Notes: generated from the letters alone by a model not told the origin. A stretch of DNA of 35,592 nucleotides from a virus (IMGVR_UViG_3300022745_000102:1-35592), one strand, 5' to 3'; shown: positions 1,270 to 27,959, counted from the stretch's first letter. Made by a program: numbers and translations.

Positions 1270-3474
1270 ATGAAAAAATCAACTATTGCTCTATGCATGA
1301 TCGTTAAAAACGAAGTGCATAATTTACCTCGTTTATTTAAGTCGATTGAAGAATGTTTTGATGAAATCCATATAACCGACACAGGCTCTGACGATGGAAC
1401 TATCGAATGGCTTGAAAAGAAGTCTGAAGAAGGTTTTTGTGGTGCAAAGGTTTTTTTACATCATTTTAAATGGATTGATGATTTTGCGGCTGCAAGGAAC
1501 TTTTCTTTTTCTCATGCGAAAACTGATTTTTTAATGTGGCTTGATGGGGACGACTGCTTAGATAAACCTGAATCATTTAAAATGTGGCGAGACAATGCCA
1601 TGGACTTGGCTGATTTCTGGCTTGCGACTTATCATTATGGTCTTGATACTGCGGGAAATCCTGTTTGCTCTTTTGCCAGGGAAAGAGTTTTTAGAAACAA
1701 CGTCGGATTTCAATGGAGATACTTTCTTCATGAGGGAGTGACGCCGACCTCTCCAGTTCTTGGCTTAAACGTAAAAGCGAATTTTGTTCCAACTTGGGGC
1801 GTAAAGCACATGAGAAGTGATGCTGATTTAACTCAGGACAGGAGCAGAAATATTCGCATCCTTGAGAAGAGAAAAAATGAACTCGATGTCAGGCTCAAAT
1901 ATTATTACGGCAAAGAGCTTTTTGATGCCAACCAACACGCTGACTCTATTCACTGGCTTTTAGAGGCAACAAGTGACCCAAAGTGCGAGCATCACGATAG
2001 ACTCTTAGGTCTTCAGTATGCGGCTTATGCATATGTGGCCTGCAACCAATTTGAGAGAGCGATTGCAATTTCTCATCAAGGTCTACAGCTTGACCCACAT
2101 CGAGCGGAATTTTACGTGTGTATTGGGGATTCTTATTTGAAAATGGGAAAACCACAGCTAGCCATTCCTGCGTTTAGCGCGGCTAAAGCTTGCCCATATG
2201 CTCCCGCAGGCGGCCAAAGTATGAGTCTTATTTTTAATTCGTCTCCTTGCTACACCGATTATCCAAGAATGCAGCTTGCAAGAATTTATGTGAATTTTGG
2301 CCAAATCGACAAAGCACTCATCGAGGCAAAAGATGCGGTTATTTATGGAAACAATGAGGCCAAAAAAGTTTTAGATGAAATTACAAGAATTGCAGAAACT
2401 GTAAAAATTAAGTCGGACTCGGCGCTTGAGGAGGTTCGTGATGTGATTATTACAGCTCCTCCAGGAACTCAGATGTATGAGTGGGACGCAGATATTGCAA
2501 AAGAGCGAGGCGTTGGGGGAAGCGAGACTGCGGCCATTCAAATGGCTTCATGGATTCATAAGCTCAGTGGGCGTCCTGTGAAAATTTTCAATGGGAGAAA
2601 AGACGAAAAAGTTTGCGAAGGCGTGCATTACATTTCAAACGAAAAGCTTGCGGACTACGCATCGAAATACAAGCCCAAACTTCACGTTGCCTGGAGGCAT
2701 ACAATCCCCGTCACACGTGCCCGCACAGCGATTTGGAGCCATGACCTCATTACTCCAGGAATTGATAACCCAGCGGCTTATGATGAGCTTCTGTGTCTGA
2801 CTCCTTTCCACAAGGATTATGCGATGGCCATGCAGGGAGTTCCTTCTAAAAAGATTTGGGTGACTCGTAACGGAATTGACCCCGCAAGGTTTAAAGATGT
2901 TGGGTCTATCGAAAAAATTCCAGGGAAAGTGATGTTTCCCTCAAGTCCTGACAGGGGACTTTTAGAGGCTCTTGCGATTATGGATGAGGTCGTCAAAGAA
3001 ATTCCACATGCTGAGCTTCATGTTTTCTATGGATGCGACAACATGAGGAAAATGGGCATGACCCAACTTGCAGACAGAATCGAAGCGGAGCTTAAAGAGC
3101 GCCCTTATGTGAAATATCATGGGAATGTGCAGCAAGACGTTTTAGCCATGCATTTTATGGAGTCAGAAATTTGGCTCTATCCTGCATCATTTATCGAAAC
3201 TTTTTGCATCACTGCAATTGAGGCCATGGCAGCTCGCTGCTACCCAGTGGCTACTGCAATCGGAGCCCTCGTAAACACGGTCGGCCAATTTGCCAAACTT
3301 GGAATGGCAGACCTCTTGGATGAGAGAGCTGTGACGGTTGGTGCTCAACAACTTTACGCGCAACGAGTCATTTCAGCCCTTAAAGAAAAGAAGTGGCAAA
3401 AAATTGACTATGACACTGAAAGTTTGAGTTGGGAGTCGGTTGCAAAGGAATGGATTGCCCACTTCGATTTATAG
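1270..3474 (+). CDS. Bifunctional glycosyltransferase: GT2 - TPR - GT4
   Basis: A 734-residue protein in three parts. Residues about 1-230 are a GT-A (family 2) domain: it opens with ALCMIVKNE, followed by ITDTGSDDGT and the metal/sugar-nucleotide motif WLDGDD at about residues 91-96. Residues about 235-370 contain TPR-like helices (AISHQGLQLDPHRAEFYVCI). Residues about 395-734 are a GT-B (family 4) domain with TRNGIDPARF and the donor-binding stretch ASFIETFCITAIEAMA. Such enzymes move sugars from nucleotide-sugar donors onto glycan or protein. A GGGGAGGA ribosome site precedes the ATG. It sits inside the virion operon, so the target could be a virion protein or the host surface; neither can be decided from sequence. 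Confidence 0.9.
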   Translation: MKKSTIALCMIVKNEVHNLPRLFKSIEECFDEIHITDTGSDDGTIEWLEKKSEEGFCGAKVFLHHFKWIDDFAAARNFSFSHAKTDFLMWLDGDDCLDKPESFKMWRDNAMDLADFWLATYHYGLDTAGNPVCSFARERVFRNNVGFQWRYFLHEGVTPTSPVLGLNVKANFVPTWGVKHMRSDADLTQDRSRNIRILEKRKNELDVRLKYYYGKELFDANQHADSIHWLLEATSDPKCEHHDRLLGLQYAAYAYVACNQFERAIAISHQGLQLDPHRAEFYVCIGDSYLKMGKPQLAIPAFSAAKACPYAPAGGQSMSLIFNSSPCYTDYPRMQLARIYVNFGQIDKALIEAKDAVIYGNNEAKKVLDEITRIAETVKIKSDSALEEVRDVIITAPPGTQMYEWDADIAKERGVGGSETAAIQMASWIHKLSGRPVKIFNGRKDEKVCEGVHYISNEKLADYASKYKPKLHVAWRHTIPVTRARTAIWSHDLITPGIDNPAAYDELLCLTPFHKDYAMAMQGVPSKKIWVTRNGIDPARFKDVGSIEKIPGKVMFPSSPDRGLLEALAIMDEVVKEIPHAELHVFYGCDNMRKMGMTQLADRIEAELKERPYVKYHGNVQQDVLAMHFMESEIWLYPASFIETFCITAIEAMAARCYPVATAIGALVNTVGQFAKLGMADLLDERAVTVGAQQLYAQRVISALKEKKWQKIDYDTESLSWESVAKEWIAHFDL

Positions 3475-21800: not shown

Positions 21801-21995
21801 ATGGGGGATTTACCCTTAAAAGAAATCGGCACCGCCGCTGCCACAGTGTATAAAGTCACCAACACGGCTGACGGAGCACTCAGAATAACAATCGACATTT
21901 CATCCGGCGACACAGAGTTAGCATCGCGCCTTCTCAAAATCGCAGCTCTAAATGAAAAGGCCGTCATTGTCTGCTTCATGGAGCACACAGGATGA
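21801..21995 (+). CDS. Small hypothetical protein before terminase, 64 aa
   Basis: ATG at 21801 after CGGGAGGACACAAC, the best ribosome site of the region, so I do not use longer in-frame starts at 21735 or earlier. MGDLPLKEIGTAAATVYKV then ALRITIDISSGDTELASRLL and KAVIVCFMEHTG. A small alpha/beta fold. Overlaps the small terminase start by 4 nt. Unknown role, possibly packaging-related. Confidence 0.6.
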   Translation: MGDLPLKEIGTAAATVYKVTNTADGALRITIDISSGDTELASRLLKIAALNEKAVIVCFMEHTG

Positions 21996-22408
21996 AAAAG
22001 AAGCTTTCCGTTATGGGGGCTCCTTGTAAATACAAGCCTGAATATTGTGAACTCCTAAAAGAGCATATGGGAGCCGGTTATTCCTTTGAAACATTCGCTG
22101 CAACAATCGATGTTTCTAAAGATACACTCTATCAGTGGGCAAAAGATTTCCCTGACTTTTCCGACGCATTCGACAAATCTCGAGTCAAATGCCAAATGTA
22201 TTGGGAAAAAACAGGCATCAATGGAGTAAATGGAAAGATTCGTCATTTTAATGGCGCAGTCTGGGCCTTTTGGATGAAAAACAGATTCCAATGGCACGAT
22301 AACGTAAAGCTCGAGCAGACCGTCGTCTCAGATGAGAGTGAAGAGGTAAAAGCCATGGCCGATAAGCTTGTGAAGCTCAAGAATGTCCTCGATGAATCTA
22401 ACGATTGA
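21992..22408 (+). CDS. terS: Terminase small subunit
   Basis: A 138-residue protein with GAPCKYKPEYCELLKEHM followed by FETFAATIDVSKDTLYQWAK, a helix-turn-helix typical of small terminases that bind the packaging site, then DAFDKSRVKCQMYWEK and a coiled-coil-like C-terminal tail with acidic start (SDESEEVKAMADKL). It forms a ring that hands DNA to the large subunit. Directly followed by, and overlapping by 26 nt, the ATPase half of the large subunit. Confidence 0.88.
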   Translation: MKKKLSVMGAPCKYKPEYCELLKEHMGAGYSFETFAATIDVSKDTLYQWAKDFPDFSDAFDKSRVKCQMYWEKTGINGVNGKIRHFNGAVWAFWMKNRFQWHDNVKLEQTVVSDESEEVKAMADKLVKLKNVLDESND

Positions 22409-23105
22409 GGCCCATAAAGAAGCTTTTCGTCGCATCTATCGAAATAGCCTCTATGCCACAGTCAAAGAACTCATGGGCTACAAAGACGTCAATTGGTTGA
22501 CACATGGGCCGATTATCAAGGCCCTTGAGTCACCAACGAAACGAAAGCTCATCATTGTTCCTCGAGGTTGTTTCAAATCAACGCTTGGAGTCGTGGGCTT
22601 TTCAATATGGTCACTTCTCAAAAATCCAAATGAGCGCATACTCATCGACTCAGAGCTTTTCCAAAACTCCTCATCATTCCTTCGAGAAATCAGAGCACAG
22701 CTTGAGTCAAAAGACTTCGTTGACCTCTTCGGGGAATTTAAAAGCGAGGATAATTGGAATCAAACGAGCATCACAATAAAACAGCGCACCAAGGCTTATA
22801 AAGAAGCCTCCATTACGTGCGGCGGTGTCGGCACGACCAAAGTAGGCCAACACTTCACAATTATCATTGGCGACGACTACAACTCGCCAAAGAACTCTGA
22901 CACGCAGGAGGGCCAAGAGAAAATTATTCGCCACTATCGCTACAATCTTTCAATCCTTGACCCCGATGGGACATACGTCGTGATTGGAACTCGCTACGCT
23001 GAATATGACTTGCCAGGTCATATATTGGGAAAAGAACTCAACCTGCCTTCTCATCCAAAATCTGGAGTTTATGATTCAGACCTAGCGGGTCACGGCCTTA
23101 TTTAG
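22383..23105 (+). CDS. terL: Terminase large subunit, ATPase half (split gene)
   Basis: A 240-residue protein holding the complete packaging ATPase: Walker A VPRGCFKST at about 59-67, Walker B FTIIIGDDYN at about 158-167 and coupling-motif VVIGTRYAEYDLPGHI at about 199-214. In unsplit family members this last motif runs on directly to a 'KWDVxV' strand and the RNase-H nuclease. Here the frame instead continues into about 20 unrelated residues and stops. The nuclease half is at 26909-27688. ATP hydrolysis drives DNA into the capsid through the portal. Start ambiguous (22383 or 22392). Confidence 0.88.
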   Translation: MSSMNLTIEAHKEAFRRIYRNSLYATVKELMGYKDVNWLTHGPIIKALESPTKRKLIIVPRGCFKSTLGVVGFSIWSLLKNPNERILIDSELFQNSSSFLREIRAQLESKDFVDLFGEFKSEDNWNQTSITIKQRTKAYKEASITCGGVGTTKVGQHFTIIIGDDYNSPKNSDTQEGQEKIIRHYRYNLSILDPDGTYVVIGTRYAEYDLPGHILGKELNLPSHPKSGVYDSDLAGHGLI

Positions 23106-23130
23106 TATTCTTTCAAAAGGGGAGGGCTTG

Positions 23131-23445
23131 ATGAGCCACGAAAATAATTCTTATGCACTTTATCCAGAAACTTTGGTGATAGGGGCTAGCACTGCGTGCG
23201 ACGTCCTCCCACTTCCGGGACAAAATAGAGTGTGGTTACAATATGGCAGTGGCGGGACTTTGTTTATTCTTGGCACCTCAATTACTGAGGGCTCTACTTT
23301 CGCTTCTGCGCAAAGATTCCTTGTCCCCTTCACAACAACGCCTTTTCTTATTCCTCTCTCGGGAATCCTCAAACTTGGTTCCAACGGGGCGACTACTACG
23401 TGTTTCCTCCTTCGCGGTCGCAGTGACGGGTTTACCTCGGCATGA
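23131..23445 (+). CDS. Tail-fibre-module protein, paralogue A
   Basis: 104 residues, ATG at 23131 after AAAAGGGGAGGG. All-beta: VIGASTACDVLPLPGQNRVWLQ, SGGTLFILGTSI, GILKLGSNGATTTCFLLRGRSDGF. It aligns clearly by eye with the next gene product around PxxGQN, GxTxxIxGxSxT and the end RGRSxGF. Placed at the 5' end of the fibre module inside the split terminase; could be a fibre-base, chaperone or head-fibre subunit. The next gene starts in overlap (ATGA). Confidence 0.75.
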   Translation: MSHENNSYALYPETLVIGASTACDVLPLPGQNRVWLQYGSGGTLFILGTSITEGSTFASAQRFLVPFTTTPFLIPLSGILKLGSNGATTTCFLLRGRSDGFTSA

Positions 23446-23735
23446 GCAATCGTGACGATGTCTACACACCGTTTGCTTCGCGCATTACGGTTGGACTCTC
23501 ATCTATTCTTCAAATTACTCCAATCGCTGGACAGAATTGCCTTGTGCTCAAGGGCATAAGCATTTCGACTCTTGAGATTGGCGGTGCTTCACTCACATGG
23601 GGTCAAGGTTATCCTCTCTCCAGTGGCGAAGCTCTTTCTTGGAATGGCTCGGGAAGTTTTTATTTAGCCGCTTCAGGAGCCACAGCTACAGTCGCATTAT
23701 TTAGGGGACGCTCCCAAGGATTCGACCAAGTATGA
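23442..23735 (+). CDS. Tail-fibre-module protein, paralogue B
   Basis: 97 residues, overlapping its paralogue by 4 nt and the fibre gene by 4 nt. VGLSSILQITPIAGQNCLVLK, LEIGGASLTWGQGYPLSSGE, FYLAASGATATVALFRGRSQGF mirror paralogue A. Tandem duplication with divergence; the pair probably form related subunits of one ring or spike. Exact role unknown. Confidence 0.75.
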   Translation: MSNRDDVYTPFASRITVGLSSILQITPIAGQNCLVLKGISISTLEIGGASLTWGQGYPLSSGEALSWNGSGSFYLAASGATATVALFRGRSQGFDQV

Positions 23736-25960
23736 GAGTTCGCTCATATTCTTCAAGCATTTCTTCGGGAGGAGGGGGAGGCGGCTCTGTTAACTCAGTT
23801 ACTGCCTCAAGCCCTCTTGCTTCAAGTGGGGGAACAAATCCAAATATAAGTTTAACAGCTCCAATTCCAGTCCTTTACGGCGGATTTGGCGAAGACATGA
23901 CGGTGCAATCTGTTTCGGGAACTTCTAATCTCACCGTCCCATCCGGCAATGTTGTACTCACATCCAATAACGCAAACGTGGTTGGTATTACAGCGGGAAC
24001 CTTCGATGGACAGCTCACATATATTTATAACGGTGCTTCTGGGGGAAATGCTTTTCTAATAACTCAAAGCGGTGCTGCCAGCGCTGCAAATAGAATTGCA
24101 TTAACAGGAAGTATTGCAAACGTTGCGTTTGCCCCTGGACAAATTGCAGTTCTTAGATACGACACATCAATATCGAGATGGCGTGTTATTTCTGTAGGTT
24201 TTTTTGGAGTAGCAAACACACCTCTTAGTTTTGGAAGTGGAGTTCTTTCAATATCTCAATCGTCATCTTCGGCGTCTGGATATTTGTCGCAAGGGGACTG
24301 GATAGCGTTTGATGCAAAGGTCGGCATTCAAGGAACCTTTGATTTACATTCAATTCCATACGTAGCTAATGCTTCAGGGCCATCTTCTTTGACTGGTAAT
24401 GTAAATAAAATTAATTTTAATTCAACGAAAGTTGCTTTAGGTGTTGGACTTCCTTATGCGGATTTGGCTGCTACAATTCACTCTAAAAGCGACACGGCGC
24501 AAACGGTTGACGACCCAATATCTTTTACAGCGACGCTTGTTTTATTTACTTTGCCAACAAATCCAACAATAGCTCTTTCCGCTGCTAATCCTGATATTCA
24601 ACAAGTCACAGCTACAGGCACTCCTTCAAACTTAGGCGGTGGCGCATACTCGCCAGGAGACGTAGTCGACGTGATAATCACGCCTGGATATAGCGATGGC
24701 TCAACCATAATTTGGGGTGTAGCATCGCGCTCTGTTAGTGGAATAACAGATGTGACTGCTTTTGATATTGATTTTGCAATCACTCAAGGAACAGAGAATT
24801 TACCCACAAACGTTTGGAGTTTTTCAAGACAAGTAAACGGCGGCGGTTACAACGATTATCAAAGGTTCACGTCGACAACATTCACAGATACAACTACTGG
24901 TTGGGTGTCGGGAGCTGACCCAGACCTCGGCAATAAAGCCGACGACTTTTTAGCTAACGGTGCAAATCCTCAAGTCACAGGATATGGAACAAAACAAACG
25001 CCAATTTCCACAACTATTTATTCGTCCTCATTTGATACTCAAGTTTACAATGACCCAAATGATGGAACGGCATACAAGCTACATGTGGCTTTCACTGGTG
25101 GCACCGCTCCTTATGCGGGCGATTGGCCCGGAAGTCGTCAATATAGCTCAAGCGTAGATTTCACAACGGGGCCAACGGGCGCCCCTACTAGTTCGGGGGC
25201 GCTGAATCCAACACCTACCACTTACGGGTATTTATCAAATGGCAGTGCACTCAATATACAATTCGACTTGGCCGACAAGCTGTTAGTTGGTTCAAACAAT
25301 ATTTATTCAGTCACTCCAATTACTGTTACAGTTACAGACCCGAACGATGGACAGCGTTATTATGTCCAGCTAGCGGGGAATACGGGCGCTTTCTTAGGGA
25401 AGCTTGTAAAAAATACAACTACAAGTCTTGAAGTAACGCCTGCAGGTTCCTTTACTTATTATGACGATGGTGTCCAGACTTTTCCTGGAAACGGGACGTT
25501 GACGCCAACCGGGTATTATTTGCCGGGTCATATAACAGAAACACATGGAACGACAACGAATGAAATTCCCTCAATTATTCATAAAGCTTTAGATGGGTCT
25601 GGAAGAATATATCACCAATGGCTAGATAGCGTCGGAAGTGAGATGGGTTATTTAAAGGTCGATGGGACCAATATGACCTTTCATGGAACAAATAGTTTTA
25701 ATTTGAGCGGTCAGCAATTTAACATGACTGCGACAAATACTTATGGAGCTTTAAATTATAATAGCTCTTTAAGGCTAAAGTGGGACAATACCGGATTAGG
25801 ATTTTTTGGAACCACTCCTGCCGCACAGCCAACGACAGCTATAGGAAGTGCAAGTTTCACTGCTAATTCAGGTACGGCTATAAATGACGCGTCTACATTT
25901 GATGGTTACACAATTAAGCAAATCGTAAAAGCGCTTAGAGATTTAGGAGTATTACAATAA
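23732..25960 (+). CDS. Tail fibre / receptor-binding protein
   Basis: 742 residues, overlapping paralogue B. Ser/Gly-rich N-terminus (SSSISSGGGGGGSVNSV), then PLYG-type repeats, a 'SASGYLSQGDWIAFDAKV' linker commonly seen in phage fibres, a large beta-rich middle with repeated ALxxNPxIQQVTATGTPSN-like units, and a C-terminal GSASFTANSGTAINDASTFD followed by GYTIKQIVKALRDLGVL, a typical trimerisation/closing helix of fibres. It would contact the host surface. It is placed between the two halves of the large terminase rather than with the tail genes. Confidence 0.85.
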   Translation: MRVRSYSSSISSGGGGGGSVNSVTASSPLASSGGTNPNISLTAPIPVLYGGFGEDMTVQSVSGTSNLTVPSGNVVLTSNNANVVGITAGTFDGQLTYIYNGASGGNAFLITQSGAASAANRIALTGSIANVAFAPGQIAVLRYDTSISRWRVISVGFFGVANTPLSFGSGVLSISQSSSSASGYLSQGDWIAFDAKVGIQGTFDLHSIPYVANASGPSSLTGNVNKINFNSTKVALGVGLPYADLAATIHSKSDTAQTVDDPISFTATLVLFTLPTNPTIALSAANPDIQQVTATGTPSNLGGGAYSPGDVVDVIITPGYSDGSTIIWGVASRSVSGITDVTAFDIDFAITQGTENLPTNVWSFSRQVNGGGYNDYQRFTSTTFTDTTTGWVSGADPDLGNKADDFLANGANPQVTGYGTKQTPISTTIYSSSFDTQVYNDPNDGTAYKLHVAFTGGTAPYAGDWPGSRQYSSSVDFTTGPTGAPTSSGALNPTPTTYGYLSNGSALNIQFDLADKLLVGSNNIYSVTPITVTVTDPNDGQRYYVQLAGNTGAFLGKLVKNTTTSLEVTPAGSFTYYDDGVQTFPGNGTLTPTGYYLPGHITETHGTTTNEIPSIIHKALDGSGRIYHQWLDSVGSEMGYLKVDGTNMTFHGTNSFNLSGQQFNMTATNTYGALNYNSSLRLKWDNTGLGFFGTTPAAQPTTAIGSASFTANSGTAINDASTFDGYTIKQIVKALRDLGVLQ

Positions 25961-26289
25961 TGGCAAAAGACTTAGAACTTAAAGGAACTCTTCCTATCTC
26001 AGATGCGAATGAAGGGCTTTTAACTCTCATCGCAAAGAAAAAGGGTTGGACTGAAACTCGGTTATTAAAAACTCCAGATGAAAAAGGCAATCCAACCGAA
26101 CCCATGACCGCAGAAGAATTTGTGTGTCAGTTTCTTCTTAAGAAAATGCTTGAGGATTATTTTAATACTGAAGTCGATGAGACATTTGAGTGGGCTTATG
26201 GGATTTTACAATCGGATGCAAAAGTAAGAGTTCTCGAACAACTCAACGAAGAACTCGTAGTAACGGCTGAGATAAAAAACAGACAATAA
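25960..26289 (+). CDS. Hypothetical protein downstream of fibre, 109 aa
   Basis: Starts on the last base of the fibre stop. LELKGTLPISDANEGLLTLIAKKK, TAEEFVCQFLLKKMLEDYF and LNEELVVTAEIKNRQ; helical and acidic. Small genes in this place often assist fibre folding or attachment. No family recognised. Confidence 0.7.
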   Translation: MAKDLELKGTLPISDANEGLLTLIAKKKGWTETRLLKTPDEKGNPTEPMTAEEFVCQFLLKKMLEDYFNTEVDETFEWAYGILQSDAKVRVLEQLNEELVVTAEIKNRQ

Positions 26290-26315
26290 TAGTTTAGGAA
26301 AGGACGCAAAAAACT

Positions 26316-26486
26316 ATGGAACAAATTCAAATCACAATTGAGCAGGCTTATGAGAATTTAGTGGCAGCGGCCAAAGATTTTCGAGGCACACTTAAGGACC
26401 ATCACGCGCTTCAAATCTCTCTTCAAATGATTCGTGAGAGAATATTTCCTAAAGACGAAGTGCCAAATCCTCCAAGCGAGGGATAA
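26316..26486 (+). CDS. Small helical protein, 56 aa
   Basis: ATG at 26316 after GGAAAGGACGC, stop at 26484-26486, next gene starting immediately. MEQIQITIEQAYENLVAAAK then LKDHHALQISLQMIRERIF. Amphipathic helix pair, no membrane segment. Too short for a family guess; probably a fibre-module or packaging accessory. Confidence 0.55.
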   Translation: MEQIQITIEQAYENLVAAAKDFRGTLKDHHALQISLQMIRERIFPKDEVPNPPSEG

Positions 26487-26912
26487 ATGTACGAGCCGAA
26501 GACACGCGTTGTTGTCTTCACAAAGACAAACGCTAAGGTTCTTATAAACAACACTCGCCCAATTAAAAAAGGGTTGCCATTTCTAGTGAATCCTCGCATG
26601 GACACTGACAACGTGTGGCCCGAGTATTGGAAAATTGGTGAGAATAACAATGTTGTCATTATGGACATGCATGAGAGAGCGCAGCGCGACAGAGACATAA
26701 GACTCTTTGGAATTGATAACGATATTTTTGAACCTGAAGTTGTGGAAGTTGAGAAATTTGAGCCAGAAATTGTTGTCCCGCTCCCATGGTGGGCGAAGTT
26801 TGAGCCAAAAAGAGTATTTGAAAGCATGAATGAGGAGCAAAGACATTTTTATTTCTTGTCAGTGATGCTTTTGCTCGTACTTTTCGCCATAATTTTGACG
26901 GGGCATAAATGA
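26487..26912 (+). CDS. Protein with C-terminal membrane helix, 141 aa
   Basis: A beta-rich start (KTRVVVFTKTNAKVLINN) and an acidic linker (FEPEVVEVEKFEPEIVV) precede HFYFLSVMLLLVLFAIIL, a C-terminal membrane anchor. It overlaps the nuclease half of the terminase as ATGA, so its translation and that of the nuclease are coupled. A membrane protein immediately ahead of terminase nuclease is odd; it may belong with the inserted module. Confidence 0.7.
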   Translation: MYEPKTRVVVFTKTNAKVLINNTRPIKKGLPFLVNPRMDTDNVWPEYWKIGENNNVVIMDMHERAQRDRDIRLFGIDNDIFEPEVVEVEKFEPEIVVPLPWWAKFEPKRVFESMNEEQRHFYFLSVMLLLVLFAIILTGHK

Positions 26913-27688
26913 AGTGGGACGTCGTTGTTGAGAAAGCCATCAAAGACGACGGAAGCTTGTATTTCGAGAAGCGTTTATCGAGGGAGTTTCTTTTAAATGT
27001 CAGAAAGTCGCAAGGCTCGTACATTTTTGCGAATCAATATCAAAATGAAATCATCCCCGAAGACGAAAAGAAGTTCAAAGCGGAATGGATTAGGTATTAT
27101 CGTGATTTACCCGACCGCTTGCTTAATTTTGGCTTCATTGACCCTGCAATCTCTCATAAAGAAGGCTCGGACTTCACGGCTCTTGTCATTGTTTCGGTCG
27201 ACGTCGAAGGGACCTGGTATGTCAGACACGCAATGCACGCAAAGCTCACGCCGACCGAGCAGCTAGACCTTGCTTTTAAGGCTTGCTTTGAGTGGAAGCT
27301 CACAACTCTTGGAATTGAAGATATCGCCTATCAGCGAGCGCTTCTTTACATGATTGCAGATGAGTCGAAGCGTCGAGGCGTTGTTCTCCCAATTACTGGA
27401 ATAGGTCTAGGAGATGCGCGTCACAAAGACACTCGAATCCTTGGCCTGGTTCCTAGATTTGAATGGAGTCGAATTTTTTTAGCTCCAGGTTTTTTAGACC
27501 TGGAAAATGAGTTAAAGTTCTTTCCTCGGGGAAAGAAAGACATCGTGGACGCATTGGCCCGTATCGAACAAATCGCATACGCGCCACAACGAGAGAGGAA
27601 ATCTAATGAACCGCCCGCACCAAACAGCCCAAGTTACGAGTCCTGGTACATCAAAAACATCCACAGAAGAAACGACGAAAATAGTTGA
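26909..27688 (+). CDS. Terminase large subunit, nuclease half (split gene)
   Basis: 259 residues with the C-terminal RNase-H-fold nuclease of a terminase: MKWDVVVEKA (start of the domain where the ATPase half stops), FIDPAISHKEGSDFTALVIV (about 76-95, first catalytic Asp), LGIEDIAYQRALLYMIADE (about 133-151) and KKDIVDALARI (about 210-220, last acidic residue). This nuclease cuts the concatemer at headful or site. It has its own GACGGGGC ribosome site. Together with 22383-23105 it makes one complete large terminase in two chains. Confidence 0.88.
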   Translation: MKWDVVVEKAIKDDGSLYFEKRLSREFLLNVRKSQGSYIFANQYQNEIIPEDEKKFKAEWIRYYRDLPDRLLNFGFIDPAISHKEGSDFTALVIVSVDVEGTWYVRHAMHAKLTPTEQLDLAFKACFEWKLTTLGIEDIAYQRALLYMIADESKRRGVVLPITGIGLGDARHKDTRILGLVPRFEWSRIFLAPGFLDLENELKFFPRGKKDIVDALARIEQIAYAPQRERKSNEPPAPNSPSYESWYIKNIHRRNDENS

Positions 27689-27959
27689 CCCTTTTGGAGG
27701 AGACGTCAGGGATTTCGAAACAAAAATCGCCATGGCTCAGCACGCCTTAGCTAGTGGCATGGGAACTGGAGAAATTGAAACTTCTCAAGCTGTCATTGAT
27801 TATTACAATCCCAATGGGACAGGGCCTTCTGGCTATTTCTTTTATAAAGGAATCGCAGTCTACCCCCATGGAAAGACCGAGGAAATTAAACTCGCCAACC
27901 GAGAGCAAATCGGTAAACGCCTTCATGGAGTAAAAGAGGGCGAGGTCGTAGGCACCTAA
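27606..27959 (+). CDS. Hypothetical protein, 117 aa
   Basis: Begins inside the last 83 nt of the nuclease gene after GAGAGAGGAAATC, a good ribosome site. The N-terminus is a Pro/Ser/Thr linker with DPFGGDVRDFETKIAMAQHAL, then a beta region (FFYKGIAVYPHGKTEEI) and KRLHGVKEGEVVG. Likely a head-assembly accessory from its position before portal. No family recognised. Confidence 0.7.
   Translation: MNRPHQTAQVTSPGTSKTSTEETTKIVDPFGGDVRDFETKIAMAQHALASGMGTGEIETSQAVIDYYNPNGTGPSGYFFYKGIAVYPHGKTEEIKLANREQIGKRLHGVKEGEVVGT

What the first reader, a model, noticed from the sequence alone, without database searches (positions are those of the whole stretch)
22383..27688. Large terminase split cleanly between ATPase and nuclease by about 3.8 kb
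Seen: ATPase motifs stop after GTRYAEYDLPGHI plus about 20 unrelated residues; MKWDVVVEKA, the strand that normally follows, begins a new gene 3.8 kb later with its own ribosome site and ATGA coupling. Known: in single-chain large terminases these parts are continuous and joined by a short linker. Inference: the packaging motor works as two separately made chains, or is rejoined by RNA or protein splicing; no intein residues or intron core were found at the borders.
Basis: partly seen in the sequence, partly recalled or inferred. Interest (0 to 1): 0.85.

Follow-up and report, generated by a model that had tools for sequence, protein, structure and literature searches.

The report
Phage packaging motor in two genes
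In a large group of uncultured short-tailed phages, the gene for the motor that pumps DNA into the virus head was cut once, long ago, into two separate genes, and tail-fibre-like and other genes now sit between them; the cut falls inside the ATPase part, so the piece thought to pass on the power stroke is made together with the DNA-cutting part.

Summary
Confirmed and extended. Window 22383-23105 encodes only the ATPase core of the large terminase (TerL); the rest starts as a new gene at 26909, 3.8 kb downstream. It is neither an artefact nor a recent insertion: 41 non-redundant contigs (window included), plus 2 more, carry both halves broken at the same site, 0.22-6.35 kb apart. ATPase and nuclease trees each put all split members on one side of one branch (SH-aLRT 97 and 95). 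More distant TerLs are single ORFs across this junction. Catalytic residues are invariant in both chains; dN/dS is 0.02-0.06 in the one measurable pair; long contigs hold one copy of each half. No intron or intein was found; the nuclease frame is random relative to the ATPase; its start usually abuts the preceding stop. So: two separately translated chains that must assemble (assembly inferred).

Correction: the cut is not between ATPase and nuclease. It lies between the ATPase core and its lid, so lid and linker are made with the nuclease, unlike the published two-gene TerL of Arthrobacter cluster AY phages. A ~100-aa protein family occupies 34 of 41 gaps, is alone in five of the six one-gene gaps, and was seen nowhere else in the loci examined.

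The parts
21992..22408 (+). terminase small subunit gene, overlapping the start of the ATPase gene by 26 nt
   Evidence: phrog_309 E 3.3e-25
22383..23105 (+). TerL chain 1: ASCE ATPase core only (240 aa)
   Evidence: phrog_38 positions 275-464; AF2 pLDDT 93.5; Foldseek best hit PhiV-1 TerL 8dgc_E, E 4.8e-11
22560..22583 (+). Walker A (PRGCFKST); R61 and K65 invariant in 51 sequences
22872..22877 (+). Walker B acidic pair D164-D165, invariant in 51 sequences
22986..22997 (+). motif III GTRY, the last TerL motif in chain 1
23037..23102 (+). variable C-terminal tail of chain 1 (residues 219-240), mostly low-confidence
23131..23445 (+). first g97-family gene in the gap
   Evidence: HMM hit E 2.8e-26
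23442..23735 (+). second g97-family gene in the gap
   Evidence: HMM hit E 4.4e-35
23732..25960 (+). 742-aa fibre-like cargo protein (by composition; only a weak depolymerase C-domain match)
25960..26289 (+). 109-aa cargo gene, function unknown
26316..26486 (+). 56-aa cargo gene, relative in L099 gap
26487..26912 (+). 141-aa protein with a hydrophobic C-terminal stretch, translationally coupled (ATGA) to the nuclease gene; family in 7 gaps
26909..27688 (+). TerL chain 2: lid, linker and RNase H-like nuclease (259 aa)
   Evidence: phrog_38 positions 468-714; AF2 pLDDT 91.6; Foldseek best hit 8dgc_E, E 9.3e-9
26909..27121 (+). lid and linker part of chain 2 (residues 1-71)
   Evidence: helices 25-35 and 37-44, RNase H strand 1 starts at 72; chain order from D6E
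27140..27541 (+). nuclease acidic residues D78, E137, D211, invariant in 68 sequences

Best explanation
This phage lineage has a two-polypeptide large terminase. One ancient event, probably insertion of a small gene (ancestor of the ~100-aa g97 family) into terL between the ASCE ATPase core and the lid, turned one gene into two. Shown: clade-wide split at one site, single branch, g97 alone in five of six one-gene gaps. Inferred: the insertion mechanism. Each half has its own start and stop and is read as separate translation, the nuclease gene coupled to whatever gene precedes it (sequence evidence only). The chains then assemble non-covalently, the lid of chain 2 docking on the core of chain 1, to rebuild the packaging motor (inferred from fold and conservation). 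The split site later became a cargo locus for fibre-like genes, glycosyltransferases, methyltransferase-like proteins and HNH enzymes (shown).
For: Same break in 41 non-redundant contigs, gaps 224-6346 nt, plus 2 contigs with both halves found separately. Distant relatives are single ORFs with 1-9 residues between domain hits in the closest and 0-2 in three archaeal-bin contigs. Split members on one side of one branch in both trees, SH-aLRT 95 and 97. Catalytic residues invariant. dN/dS 0.019 and 0.063 in L077/L082. Nuclease frame random relative to ATPase; 33 of 41 nuclease starts within -30 to +12 nt of the preceding stop. One match of each half in each of 14 long contigs. g97 alone in gaps of L092, L107, L090, L089, L032; all 75 copies lie upstream of the nuclease, none in fused relatives.
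Against: No experiment. No complex was modelled (only single chains could be folded). ATPase-nuclease distances correlate (r 0.48) but not clearly better than ATPase-portal (0.42), so co-inheritance, not contact, is shown. dN/dS is measurable in one pair only. In L051, L044, L064 and L068 no g97 was detected, so loss or another origin must be assumed there.
Confidence: 0.82

Rival explanations
1. The halves are joined at RNA level: the gap is a self-splicing intron, or the halves are trans-spliced or bypassed by the ribosome.
For: Group I introns in terL are known: LL-H, Moonbeam (PMC4299906) and SIOphi, with splicing shown (PMC11878797).
Against: No Rfam match in the window or in nine short-gap loci; the sensitive scan of the region gave only a sub-threshold non-intron match. 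The second half has its own start codon, usually abutting the previous stop, and the gap contents differ between relatives.
Confidence: 0.05
2. The halves are joined at protein level by a split intein.
For: Inteins occur in related TerLs: L070 at VG|TRY, L109 in the nuclease, ctLwi270 in the lid; Mic1 TerL has two (PMC7156551).
Against: In the shortest forms chain 1 ends about 20 residues after GTRY and chain 2 starts one to three residues before the conserved Trp (L021, L006, L107), leaving no room for intein fragments. The L070 intein lies about 17 residues upstream of the fission point.
Confidence: 0.02
3. The two products work apart: chain 1 is the translocation ATPase, and chain 2 is an independent nuclease (for example for DNA cutting or resolution) not built into the motor.
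For: phi29-type packaging ATPases are recalled to work without a TerL nuclease domain (background knowledge, not tested here). No complex has been shown.
Against: Chain 2 carries the lid, which in solved TerLs is part of the ATPase domain (PMC5727402), and its lid motifs (W3, G36, Q43, Y44) are nearly invariant; a free nuclease would not need it.
Confidence: 0.08
4. Assembly artefact, broken gene or helper-dependent element.
For: The window record may be incomplete: it is an IMG/VR record, and one ORF runs off its end.
Against: Same break in dozens of contigs from many metagenomes; low dN/dS; own small terminase, portal, capsid and adaptor.
Confidence: 0.02

Closest known systems
Two-gene TerL of Arthrobacter cluster AY phages (BillyTP gp2 and gp3; PMC11920828)
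   Same: ATPase and nuclease of the large terminase are separate genes in one operon.
   Different: AY genes are consecutive and overlap by 17 nt; the break is at the start of the nuclease, so the lid stays with the ATPase; a different TerL family (phrog_19179/phrog_9, not phrog_38).
Podovirus ctLwi270 (MW202554)
   Same: Nuclease on its own ORF; distant relative by ATPase (31%), capsid (30%) and portal (22%).
   Different: The break is after the lid, right before RNase H strand 1; the first ORF carries an intein in the lid.
Intron-interrupted terL (Lactobacillus LL-H, Bacillus Moonbeam, SIOphi)
   Same: terL interrupted by extra DNA.
   Different: No intron detected here; the interruption holds ordinary genes and the second half has its own start.
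Single-chain TerL of fused relatives (L111, L112, archaeal-bin contigs L126, L127, L129) and T7-like TerL (PhiV-1)
   Same: Same domains, motifs and order.
   Different: One polypeptide.
PHROG half-families phrog_4758 (243 positions) and phrog_5573 (250 positions)
   Same: Their ends are complementary at the present junction, so the same break may already sit in reference genomes.
   Different: Members and any description could not be listed here.

Membership tests
TerL, taken as the sum of both genes | Walker A and B of the ASCE ATPase core | tested here: met
   R61, K65, D164, D165 invariant in 51 sequences
TerL, taken as the sum of both genes | RNase H-like nuclease with acidic triad | tested here: met
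   D78, E137, D211 invariant in 68 sequences; TerL nuclease structures among top Foldseek hits
TerL, taken as the sum of both genes | Single polypeptide | tested here: not met
   Separate ORFs in all 41 contigs
TerL, taken as the sum of both genes | Packaging activity | not testable with these tools
   No experiment possible
Two-gene TerL of cluster AY type | ATPase and nuclease parts on separate genes | tested here: met
Two-gene TerL of cluster AY type | Genes consecutive | tested here: not met
   At least one gene between in every gap examined
Two-gene TerL of cluster AY type | Break between lid and nuclease | tested here: not met
   71 residues precede RNase H strand 1 in chain 2 against an AY nuclease gene that starts at the nuclease
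Intron-interrupted terL | Recognisable group I or II intron in the interruption | tested here: not met
   No Rfam hit
Intron-interrupted terL | Spliced transcript | not testable with these tools
   No RNA data
Split-intein TerL | N- and C-intein fragments at the borders | tested here: not met
   Border lengths and sequences leave no room

The most novel reading that the evidence does not exclude
A natural two-subunit packaging motor in which the ASCE ATPase and the lid-nuclease are separate, possibly exchangeable or non-stoichiometric subunits, so that the lid-nuclease chain could join for cutting and leave or swap during translocation, perhaps with the gap-encoded g97 protein as a third component. 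A covalent link between core and lid would then not be needed for the power stroke.
Probability: 0.2. Interest if true: 0.8.

Novelty: new variant of a known kind. Interest (0 to 1): 0.62.

Why it matters
Models of viral DNA packaging (T4, Sf6, D6E, P74-26; summarised in PMC5727402) propose that ATP hydrolysis in the core moves the lid, which passes force to DNA or to the nuclease domain. Here evolution has cut the chain between core and lid and kept it cut across a diverse clade (nuclease identity to the window down to about 40%). That makes it directly testable whether the covalent link matters, whether ATPase and nuclease need one-to-one stoichiometry, and whether halves can be exchanged. 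Practically, single-gene TerL annotation and phylogenies will miss or mis-measure such phages, and the split site marks a cargo locus for fibre-like genes.

Tried and rejected
Single-protein scans of viral contigs with each window half found nothing; the capsid gave the first relatives, then alignments gave dozens. Scans of genome contigs found no split relative, only five distant TerLs, four of them single ORFs, so no host could be named. Jasmine, Shocker and ctEqG8, near by capsid or portal, have single-gene TerLs that the family HMMs do not detect. ICP2, P12053L, BSTP12, Tripp, Youna2, NHagos, StAugustine and ReqiPine5 were checked as possible precedents and are single-gene. PDB sequence searches with the nuclease profile gave only chance hits; hhalign of the family to Sf6 and D6E was not significant. 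Naming a P-loop Arg to lid Tyr contact residue by residue was dropped: by eye D6E Y213 does not fall on Y44. Mirror-tree did not separate ATPase-nuclease from ATPase-portal. Literature searches for the same split found only cluster AY.

Full report
What is in the window. The window is a 35,592-base IMG/VR virus record of a phage with a P22/SU10-like portal, an SU10-like adaptor, its own major capsid protein and a small terminase. The two TerL halves are at 22383-23105 and 26909-27688. Against the single-chain profile phrog_38 they match positions 275-464 and 468-714, so almost nothing is missing between them. The window holds one match of each.

The split is a clade trait. The capsid brought in four relatives. 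The three with both halves on the contig have the same split, with gaps of 4.8, 4.8 and 1.2 kb; the fourth has a stand-alone nuclease. Alignments of the halves then brought in 57 nuclease and 46 ATPase loci. In 41 non-redundant contigs, window included, both halves are present and always on separate ORFs, with gaps of 224 to 6,346 nt, median 2,312. Two further contigs have both halves on loci fetched separately; in one of them the pair lies at opposite ends of the contig. Most relatives below about 40% identity have one ORF; in the closest of these the two domain hits are 1-9 residues apart, and in three contigs from archaeal bins 0-2. The exception is ctLwi270, split at another place (below).

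One origin. In separate trees of nuclease (83 rows) and ATPase (66 rows) all split members lie on one side of one branch, SH-aLRT 95 and 97 (a first nuclease tree gave 98). These are quick searches without bootstrap, and some fused rows have long branches, but both trees ask for a single change of state.

Where the cut is. Borders side by side: the fused L112 reads GTRYHFADLYGFLIDKYSNDPRWHIEVHQIYDDKGDPIFPEKFKPQYIQEL; the split L021 reads GTRYAEDDVIGYILENEVKHE, stop, then a new gene MDKWSVVYEKAIRDDGSLFFPERLTKEFL. The cut falls just after the helix that follows motif III. In D6E TerL the chain order is ASCE core, lid, a 12-residue linker (230-241), nuclease (PMC5727402). The AF2 model of chain 2 (pLDDT 91.6) has 71 residues, with helices 25-35 and 37-44, before the first RNase H strand at 72-78. 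The model of chain 1 (pLDDT 93.5) ends with helix 210-218 and a low-confidence tail. So chain 1 is the core and chain 2 is lid, linker and nuclease. The PDB fold search puts the same full-length TerL (PhiV-1, 8dgc_E) first for both chains, and the profile of fused relatives runs into T7 gp19 up to residue 225, which places the junction near residues 217-219. The lid assignment rests on homology and chain order, not on a solved structure of this protein.

Are both halves under selection? R61, K65 and D164-D165 are invariant in 51 ATPase sequences; D78, E137 and D211 are invariant in 68 nuclease sequences. In the closest pair (L077/L082) dN/dS is 0.063 for the ATPase and 0.019 for the nuclease; synonymous sites are saturated, or nearly so, in the other pairs. 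Each of 14 contigs of 34-41 kb has exactly one match to each half.

Splicing or two chains? Rfam found nothing in the window at gathering threshold and nothing in nine loci with short gaps; the sensitive scan of the region gave one sub-threshold, non-intron match. The frame of the nuclease relative to the ATPase is random (15, 15 and 11 of 41), and 33 of 41 nuclease starts lie within -30 to +12 nt of the preceding stop. In L038 no ATG, GTG or TTG start was found at the nuclease, which may be a sequence error or a rare start. Inteins do occur in related TerLs (L070 at VG|TRY, L109 in the nuclease, ctLwi270 in the lid), but not at the split and not in the split members. Introns in terL are known from LL-H, Moonbeam and SIOphi, so this was a serious rival; the evidence does not fit it.

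What lies between. A ~100-residue family (g97; beta-rich by its sequence pattern) is in 34 of 41 gaps; three more gaps (L080, L101, L105) hold a family that may be related (hhalign probability 48%). In six gaps a single ORF fills the space, and in five of those it is g97. All 75 copies found in split-clade loci, overlapping loci included, lie upstream of the nuclease, and none is in the loci of fused relatives. The simplest history is that a g97-type gene inserted into terL and the site then collected other genes: fibre-like proteins, glycosyltransferases, methyltransferase-like proteins, small membrane proteins and HNH enzymes (names from sequence patterns, partly untested). The function of g97 is unknown; no credible PHROG match was found.

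Comparison with known cases. [quoted passage not shown] In BillyTP the break is at the start of the nuclease, so the lid stays with the ATPase. ctLwi270 is a further arrangement: an intein in the lid and a break right before RNase H strand 1. Two PHROG families have complementary ends at the present junction, so the same break may already sit in reference genomes without comment; I could not list their members. I therefore call this a new variant of a known kind.

Shown and inferred. Shown: the split, its site, its single-branch distribution, conservation of both halves, absence of detectable introns and inteins. Inferred: separate translation, non-covalent assembly into one motor, insertion of g97 as the cause. 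Unknown: host, stoichiometry, and whether chain 2 stays in the motor during translocation.

Noticed in passing
L070:3457-5928: The fused TerL of a near relative carries a full intein (C...HN before T) at motif III, VG|TRY; the Mic1 cyanophage TerL is reported to have inteins too, one with Thr at the extein border.
   Followed up: partly
L109:960-3698: TerL with an intein-like insert in the nuclease part, after DDL.
   Followed up: no
L010:3929-6466 (MW202554): ctLwi270 TerL combines an intein in the lid with a separate nuclease ORF: an apparently independent split at a different site from the window's.
   Followed up: partly
window 27606-27688: The gene after the nuclease (27606-27959) overlaps the nuclease end by 83 nt in another frame; ORFs in L003-L006 overlap similarly, with a protein-level match in L003 and L004.
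   Followed up: no
window 26487-26912; L020, L021, L024, L028, L036, L072 gaps: A protein with a hydrophobic C-terminal stretch lies directly upstream of the nuclease gene in seven gaps; function unknown.
   Followed up: no
L096:7396-7890 and L105:9288-9764: HNH-like proteins encoded inside the terL gap.
   Followed up: no
window 1270-3474: Large two-domain glycosyltransferase with TPR repeats; glycosyltransferase-like proteins also occur in several terL gaps.
   Followed up: no
L069:744-1572: Nuclease half broken across two overlapping frames, a likely frameshift or sequence error in that contig.
   Followed up: no
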